Source of the DNA: an uncultured Bacteroidia bacterium
GTDB lineage: Bacteria > Bacteroidota > Bacteroidia > J057 > CALLMJ01
NCBI GenBank assembly: GCA_938005475.1
Contig: CALLNY010000021.1
Coordinates: 1-39,107, forward strand
Length of the DNA: 39,107 bases
Direction of reading: 5' to 3'
Shown one piece after another: positions 34,004 to 35,171 of the stretch (the first letter of the stretch is position 1; the number at the start of each line of letters is the position of its first letter). The position numbers and the translations under genes are program-made. A model generated the notes under the pieces. It searched no databases, was not told the origin of the DNA, and saw only the letters and a list, made by a program, of their open reading frames with translations.

Positions 34004-34846
34004 ATGTTTCGGCTAACTCTGTTTTTAATTTTAATTTTTATTAATTTTTCTATCTATTCACAAATAACACAAAAGGAAGTTATCGATAAACTGATAGCGG
34101 CTTCTGAACAAATAAAAACGTTGAAGTACACCCTCAAAAAATGGGAACGTATTGAAGGAAAAATGGAATTCGGTCATTTAATGTGTAAGTTACAACGTAA
34201 TCCCCTTAAAATTTATATTTATAATTACGCTCCTGATGTTGGAGCAGAAGTTTTATATTTTGGGGGCAATAAAACTGCATTAGTGAATCCTAATAAATTT
34301 CCATATATTAATCTTAATCTAGATATTGATGGTTCACTACTACGTAATAAACAACATCATAATGTTACATCTTCAGGTTTTGATTATATGGCAGAGTTAT
34401 TAAAAAATGCAAAAAAAAAGTTTGCTAATGATATAGATAAAAGTCTAAAATTAGAAGGAACAATTAAATGGAATAATAAAGATTGTTATAAGGTTGTTAT
34501 GGAAAACCCACGTTATGCAATACAATCTTACACCATGCAACCTAACGAAACAGTTCTACAAGTAGCACAAAAATTGTATGTATCAGAATATAAAATCGTA
34601 GAGCTTAACAAAGGTATCGTCTCCGACCCACTAAGTAAAGCACCAGGTAAAACTATCAAAGTACCTTCAGATTATGGAAAACGTATTGTTTTGTATATTG
34701 ATAAACAGAGTTTTTTGCCTGTCGTTCAGTTTGTTTATGATGAAATTGGATTATTTGAGCAGTACGAGTATTACGATTTAGAAATCAATCCAAAATTCCC
34801 TGAAAAAGAATTTACAAAAGAATTTGAAGGTTACAAATTTAAATGA
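34004..34846 (+). CDS. Secreted DUF1571-type protein with an internal LysM-like segment
   Basis: A 280-residue envelope protein with a Sec signal peptide (MFRLTLFLILIFINFSIYSQ). Residues 25-175 and 226-280 resemble the DUF1571/LolA-like half-barrel (KTLKYTLKKWERIEG, YNYAPDVGAEVLY, LKLEGTIKWNNKDCYKV, then VLYIDKQSFLPVVQFVYDEIGLFEQYEYYDL). Between them, about 176-222, is a LysM-like module: YTMQPNETVLQVAQKLYVSE, YKIVELNKG, then PGKTIKVPSDYG. LysM binds peptidoglycan, so the protein may sit between outer membrane and cell wall. The assignment is by pattern. The mature N-terminus has no lipobox Cys, so it is probably periplasmic. Divergent from the DCC operon. Confidence 0.75.
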   Translation: MFRLTLFLILIFINFSIYSQITQKEVIDKLIAASEQIKTLKYTLKKWERIEGKMEFGHLMCKLQRNPLKIYIYNYAPDVGAEVLYFGGNKTALVNPNKFPYINLNLDIDGSLLRNKQHHNVTSSGFDYMAELLKNAKKKFANDIDKSLKLEGTIKWNNKDCYKVVMENPRYAIQSYTMQPNETVLQVAQKLYVSEYKIVELNKGIVSDPLSKAPGKTIKVPSDYGKRIVLYIDKQSFLPVVQFVYDEIGLFEQYEYYDLEINPKFPEKEFTKEFEGYKFK

Positions 34847-35015
34847 TATAAGAAATAGAAAATTATGATTTTGCAGGGAAATTTAGTTTTTTTAGCTAAC
34901 AAAAAAATATTGCTATATCTTGTAAGTAATTTATTTAAAGGCAATCATTTTTATTGAAGTCAGGATTTGTTCTATTTATTTATTATGGTTTCCTAACAAT
35001 CTTTAAAGTTAATAA

Positions 35016-35129
35016 CTAAAACAACCACTGTACTATTTTGATGGTTAGTGCTAAAAATAGGCATAAGGGTAACAACTTTAATGATAAACCATCTAATGCA
35101 TTAGGAGTTTTAATTCTTGGTCGTACCAT
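35016..35129 (-). CDS. Candidate 37-residue single-span membrane peptide
   Basis: On the minus strand an ATG at 35129 opens a 37-codon frame ending in TAG at 35018-35016. The predicted peptide has a basic N-terminus (MVRPRIKTPNALDG) followed by a hydrophobic helix (LSLKLLPLCLFLALTIKIVQ) ending WLF, a layout of a type II single-span membrane protein. A perfect TATATTTG box lies 14 nt before the ATG with a TTTG 16 nt further up. The spacing from box to ATG is close to that of the divIVA gene (15 nt). The frame contains a CTAATGCATTAG palindrome (35093-35104), probably incidental. I do not know a homologue. Chance cannot be excluded for so short a frame. Confidence 0.5.
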   Translation of the reverse strand: MVRPRIKTPNALDGLSLKLLPLCLFLALTIKIVQWLF

Positions 35130-35143
35130 AATAATTTTATTTG

Positions 35144-35171
35144 CAAATATAAAACACTTAAACGTATCAAA
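35144..35171 (-). promoter_or_regulatory. Promoter of the 37-residue ORF
   Basis: On the minus strand, TTTG (35168-35171), 16 nt, then TATATTTG (35144-35151). The spacing is at the short end but the -7 box is perfect. Confidence 0.45.

What the first reader, a model, noticed from the sequence alone, without database searches (positions are those of the whole stretch)
35016..35129. Possible 37-residue membrane micropeptide with its own promoter box
In an otherwise empty gap, a minus-strand ATG is preceded by a perfect TATATTTG box at a distance near that seen for the divIVA gene. It opens a frame with a basic N-terminus and one hydrophobic helix. Peptides this short are routinely missed by annotation.
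Basis: partly seen in the sequence, partly recalled or inferred. Interest (0 to 1): 0.6.

Follow-up and report, generated by a model that had tools for sequence, protein, structure and literature searches.

The report
Conserved 37-residue single-helix membrane protein
A tiny unannotated gene coding for a 37-residue, probably membrane-spanning protein is real: two further intact copies, one elsewhere in the same genome and one in another species of the genus, keep its protein sequence while the surrounding DNA has changed completely, but what it does is not known.

Summary
Window 35016-35129 (minus) is a genuine small gene. Two further intact copies exist: one in another species of the same genus (G001 C120, 37 aa, 62% identical) and a paralogue in the window's own genome (G000 C5, 37 aa, 54-56%). 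Start and stop coincide in all three, identity falls to background just outside the frame, pairwise dN/dS (NG86) is 0.13-0.16, and the frame beats all 5000 column shuffles. Each copy has a TAHHTTTG promoter box 14, 19 or 20 nt before the ATG, the distance at which that box peaks before ordinary genes here. The product has an RPR N-terminus and one helix (residues 10-36), with invariant P21, C23, K31, Q34 and W35. Each gene stands alone; the next gene downstream is convergent. It does not keep a place next to cdd: gene order is scrambled between the species. Searches found no relative outside the genus and no match in Pfam, NCBIfam or PDB sequences. Most likely it is a single-pass inner-membrane accessory or regulatory subunit of a larger membrane protein (inferred; partner unknown). 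A toxin-like membrane peptide is the main rival, though no conserved antisense promoter was found.

The parts
35016..35129 (-). ORF of 37 codons plus stop: basic RPR N-terminus, one hydrophobic helix, no cleavable or lipidated signal apparent
   Evidence: homologues L048 and L065; dN/dS 0.13-0.16; frame score 376 against a shuffle maximum of 272; AlphaFold2 helix 10-36, pLDDT about 92-93 over residues 21-37
35144..35151 (-). TATATTTG, -7 element of the Bacteroidota primary sigma factor (consensus TAHHTTTG), 14 nt before the ATG
   Evidence: TACTTTTG at 19 and 20 nt in the two homologues; consensus from PMC6847099
35130..35139 (-). Predicted 10-nt 5' leader with A at -3 and -6; start site near 35139, from the box position (G of the box at -5). 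Inferred, not measured

Best explanation
It is a real, self-contained gene for a 37-residue protein. Shown: conserved frame, purifying selection, conserved promoter box, monocistronic layout. Predicted: the protein sits in the inner membrane as one helix (about residues 16-19 to 36), N-terminus (RPR.K) inside, C-terminus at or in the outer face. Inferred: it acts as a small accessory or regulatory subunit that docks on a larger membrane protein through a helix carrying the invariant residues P21, C23, T29, K31, Q34 and W35. One copy in each species (G000 C5, G001 C120) keeps a conserved upstream block near -111 to -60 and is probably regulated; the window copy next to cdd is a diverged paralogue without a clear version of that block. 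Confidence that the gene is real is about 0.95; the number below is for the accessory-subunit role.
For: Full-length homologues with the same start and stop. 18 of 37 columns invariant. dN 0.19-0.27 against dS 1.4-1.8. Identity per 30 nt is 18-23 inside the frame and mostly 4-15 outside it. 10-11 synonymous codon differences in each pair, and 0 of 5000 shuffles reach the frame score. TAHHTTTG box at 14, 19 and 20 nt, chance about 2.5e-6 for all three. Best 19-residue hydropathy window 2.0-2.3. Helix 10-36. The downstream gene is convergent in all three loci. TATTTATGCGTAA occurs exactly only at -111 and -110 of the two orthologous copies in the two genomes.
Against: No expression or proteomic data. 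Only three sequences from two genomes, and dS is saturated, so dN/dS is rough. The genomic neighbourhood is not conserved, so no partner can be named. The role is argued from analogy with other small single-pass proteins.
Confidence: 0.5

Rival explanations
1. A membrane-active, toxin-like peptide (type I toxin style, as DinQ or TisB): a short hydrophobic helix with a lysine in its outer part that depolarises the membrane, present in several dispersed copies and held down by an RNA or by transcriptional control.
For: Size, hydrophobicity, basic residues, dispersed paralogues in intergenic sites and narrow distribution fit. Type I toxins often carry positive residues and some carry cysteine (PMC8309996). 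Putative type I pairs with candidate sORFs are reported in a Bacteroidota species (PMC7366714).
Against: No antisense TAnnTTTG box is shared by the three loci: none within 400-500 nt in the window, only -33 in L065, only -151, -365 and +289 in L048. The predicted leader is short (10-16 nt), leaving little room for the structured leader typical of such toxins (general knowledge).
Confidence: 0.2
2. The conserved unit is mainly an RNA (a small RNA with an incidental or dual-function frame).
For: Monocistronic, intergenic, short transcription unit with its own promoter.
Against: Conservation is codon-structured (position identity about 0.64-0.75 / 0.83-0.89 / 0.51-0.58) and stops at the ends of the frame; no Rfam match in the window.
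Confidence: 0.04
3. A leader peptide that controls the gene after it (attenuation).
For: Short frame close behind a promoter.
Against: In all three loci the next gene downstream is on the opposite strand, and amino-acid conservation spans a membrane helix.
Confidence: 0.02
4. A chance ORF in an AT-rich gap.
For: TATATTTG is common in this AT-rich genome.
Against: Two intact homologues with E 4.5e-11 and 1.9e-9, strong purifying selection and matching promoters.
Confidence: 0.02

Closest known systems
Small single-pass regulators or subunits of membrane proteins (e.g. MgrB on PhoQ, PMC8404706; CydX of cytochrome bd, from general knowledge)
   Same: Length (about 37-47 aa), one membrane helix, short basic N-terminus, separate small gene (MgrB)
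   Different: No family or structure library match; partner unknown
DUF4492 (PF14899), a small membrane protein of Bacteroidota
   Same: Short, with a lysine inside a hydrophobic stretch (recalled, not tested by alignment)
   Different: No match to the DUF4492 profile in either genome of the genus nor of the peptide to Pfam
Type I toxins DinQ and TisB
   Same: Single hydrophobic helix with polar or basic residues
   Different: No shared antisense promoter, short predicted leader, no family match

Membership tests
Protein-coding gene (conserved small ORF) | Intact homologues, same start and stop, purifying selection | tested here: met
Bacteroidota primary sigma-dependent gene | TAHHTTTG element shortly upstream in all members, at the spacing seen for other genes | tested here: met
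Single-pass small membrane protein | One hydrophobic helix of membrane-spanning length | tested here: met
   hydropathy and helix; predictions only, membrane insertion itself not testable here
Type I toxin | Antisense or divergent RNA antitoxin promoter conserved at the locus | tested here: not met
   no TAnnTTTG shared on the opposite strand
Type I toxin | Growth inhibition on overproduction | not testable with these tools
   needs an experiment
DUF4492 / cytochrome bd small subunit | Match to PF14899 | tested here: not met
Lipoprotein | Lipobox ending in G/A/S-C | tested here: not met
   LP[LFI]C in the three sequences
Leader peptide | Same-strand gene directly downstream | tested here: not met
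   convergent downstream gene in all three loci

The most novel reading that the evidence does not exclude
The family is the founding member of a lineage-restricted regulator: two paralogous micropeptides, one under a private upstream control element and one not, that tune the same membrane machine in this genus.
Probability: 0.15. Interest if true: 0.55.

Novelty: new member of a known kind. Interest (0 to 1): 0.36.

Why it matters
It shows that a 37-codon gene, too short for routine annotation, can be recognised in raw Bacteroidota sequence from its promoter box and membrane signature and then confirmed by comparison. It adds one conserved small membrane protein family with clear invariant residues to test. 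Genus-specific small families are very numerous (more than 52 million in one catalogue, PMC11364881), so by itself it is not a surprise.

Tried and rejected
Conserved position next to cdd: not met. Synteny of the other copies: the flavoprotein of the G001 locus sits next to a SecA-like gene in G000, and Lnt of the G000 C5 locus has another neighbour in G001. Regulon for the upstream element: with one mismatch TATTTATGCGTAA is no commoner than its reversed control, so no wider regulon is shown. Phage, plasmid or viral origin: no credible match. The first genome contigs pattern was one N short and void; the corrected one matched all three known copies locally and found only the G001 contig. The search for related loci refuses so short a query. 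An antisense frame is also open in all three copies, but its score (232) lies within the shuffled range. Weak class-level hits (E 0.004 and above, many with stops) were treated as noise. A first attempt to compare L018 with the window by blastn failed on a file name and gave nothing.

Full report
Observation. The window is contig 21 of a 2.63-Mb genome. The minus-strand frame 35129-35016 encodes MVRPRIKTPNALDGLSLKLLPLCLFLALTIKIVQWLF. It lies in the gap between cdd (35713-35234, minus; cytidine deaminase) and a convergent gene with a DUF1571 domain (34004-34846, plus).

Is the box meaningful? TATATTTG alone is common here (311 sites against 257 for the reversed control). TAnnTTTG, however, occurs 25 times in the 100 nt before 63 ORFs of 100 aa or more, against 3 for the reversed control, with 19 of the 25 boxes within 30 nt of the start. 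It is therefore the working promoter element of this genus, as known for other Bacteroidota (PMC6847099, PMC7366714). Among 11 intergenic ATG ORFs of 20-60 aa in the window only this one has a TAHHTTTG box just upstream. By the numbering of PMC6847099 (last base of the box at -5) the start site would be near 35139 and the leader 10 nt long, with A at -3 and -6, the positions that favour initiation in Flavobacterium. This start site is inferred.

Conservation. tblastn in 60 relatives found two real matches besides the query: G001 C120 5614-5724, MIRPRAKSTTTFNDLSKKLLPFCLFLAITIKLLQWLF*, and a paralogue in the own genome, C5 63533-63643, MIRPRSRSSITFSDISLKLLPICIFLVLTIKLLQWLL*. All three start and stop at the same columns; 18 of 37 columns are invariant. 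NG86 dN and dS are 0.244/1.50, 0.272/1.83 and 0.187/1.43, ratios of 0.13 to 0.16, with dS near saturation. Identity is 18-23 of 30 nt inside the frame and mostly at background outside; the frame score of 376 exceeds all 5000 column shuffles (maximum 272), and the other two sense frames score 19 and 48. Both homologues have TACTTTTG at 19 and 20 nt from the ATG. The chance of a TAHHTTTG box in a 17-nt span in all three is about 2.5e-6. The reading as a gene is therefore secure.

Two copies, one with an upstream block. The C5 and C120 copies resemble each other most and share a block from about -111 to -60 (TATTTATGCGTAA..TTAT.CC.AATTATT.GTAATTTT.AAAC). TATTTATGCGTAA occurs exactly once in each genome, at -111 and -110 of this gene. 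In G001 it extends to TACGTAT-TT-ATGCGTA, an imperfect inverted repeat; reading it as a regulator site is inference. The window copy has only a weak counterpart. I read C5 and C120 as orthologues and the window copy as a paralogue that is missing from, or not assembled in, G001 (96% complete).

Range. Profile searches of the 22 held genomes of the order, 395 of the class and 395 of the phylum found the family only in this genus. A degenerate pattern that matches all three copies found in 84,980 species genomes only CALLMJ010000120.1, an uncultured Bacteroidia MAG whose 26,221-base contig 120 corresponds to G001 C120. No viral or phage match and no credible plasmid match was found. No Pfam or NCBIfam model matches, and no PDB sequence better than E 0.7. 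Failure to detect diverged relatives is possible: cdd is 80% identical within the genus and 58% to the next family, and a 37-residue protein evolving faster than that could fall below detection. 'Genus-restricted' is thus the result of these searches, not a proof of absence elsewhere.

Layout. The next downstream gene is convergent in all three loci, so the peptide gene is monocistronic and not a leader for another gene. The neighbours differ: cdd and DUF1571; a small minus-strand gene and a flavoprotein; MBOAT and Lnt (the last three named by reading their sequences, not by a profile search). In the other species these neighbours lie elsewhere without the peptide, so gene order is scrambled and no partner can be inferred from position.

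Protein. AlphaFold2 gives one helix, residues 10-36, with pLDDT near 92-93 over residues 21-37 (three sequences only). The best 19-residue hydropathy window is 2.0 to 2.3, and net charge is +4 or +5. The positive N-terminus predicts N-in topology, with K31, Q34 and W35 at the outer interface. LP[LFI]C is not a lipobox.

Mechanism. Best guess: an accessory or regulatory single-pass subunit of a larger inner-membrane protein, docking through the conserved polar and small residues of the helix. This step is inference from the pattern of invariant residues and from known small proteins such as MgrB (PMC8404706, abstract). The toxin-like rival keeps some weight because of size, dispersed paralogues and narrow range, but no antisense promoter is shared and the predicted leader is short. 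A DUF4492-like role is not supported: that profile finds nothing in the genus.

Verdict. It belongs to the large known kind of lineage-specific small membrane proteins, which is why interest is moderate.

Noticed in passing
window 34897-34991: Degraded copy of a dispersed intergenic repeat, core GTAATTTATTTAAAAACAATTAGTTATA, with at least 16 copies in the own genome and 14 in G001. Nature unknown (mobile-element remnant or other repeat); it was not seen beside the other two micropeptide copies.
   Followed up: partly
L065 (G000 C5) -111 to -60 and L048 (G001 C120) -110 to -60 relative to the ATG: Conserved upstream block with imperfect inverted repeats (TACGTAT-TT-ATGCGTA and TACCAA-TTAT-TTGGTA in L048); its core TATTTATGCGTAA is found exactly only before this gene in both genomes.
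   Followed up: partly
window 34004-34846: Protein matching DUF1571 whose C-terminal half holds a stretch that resembles a LysM domain by eye (about residues 177-224: SYTMQPNETVLQVAQKLYVSEYKIVELN...). Not tested.
   Followed up: no
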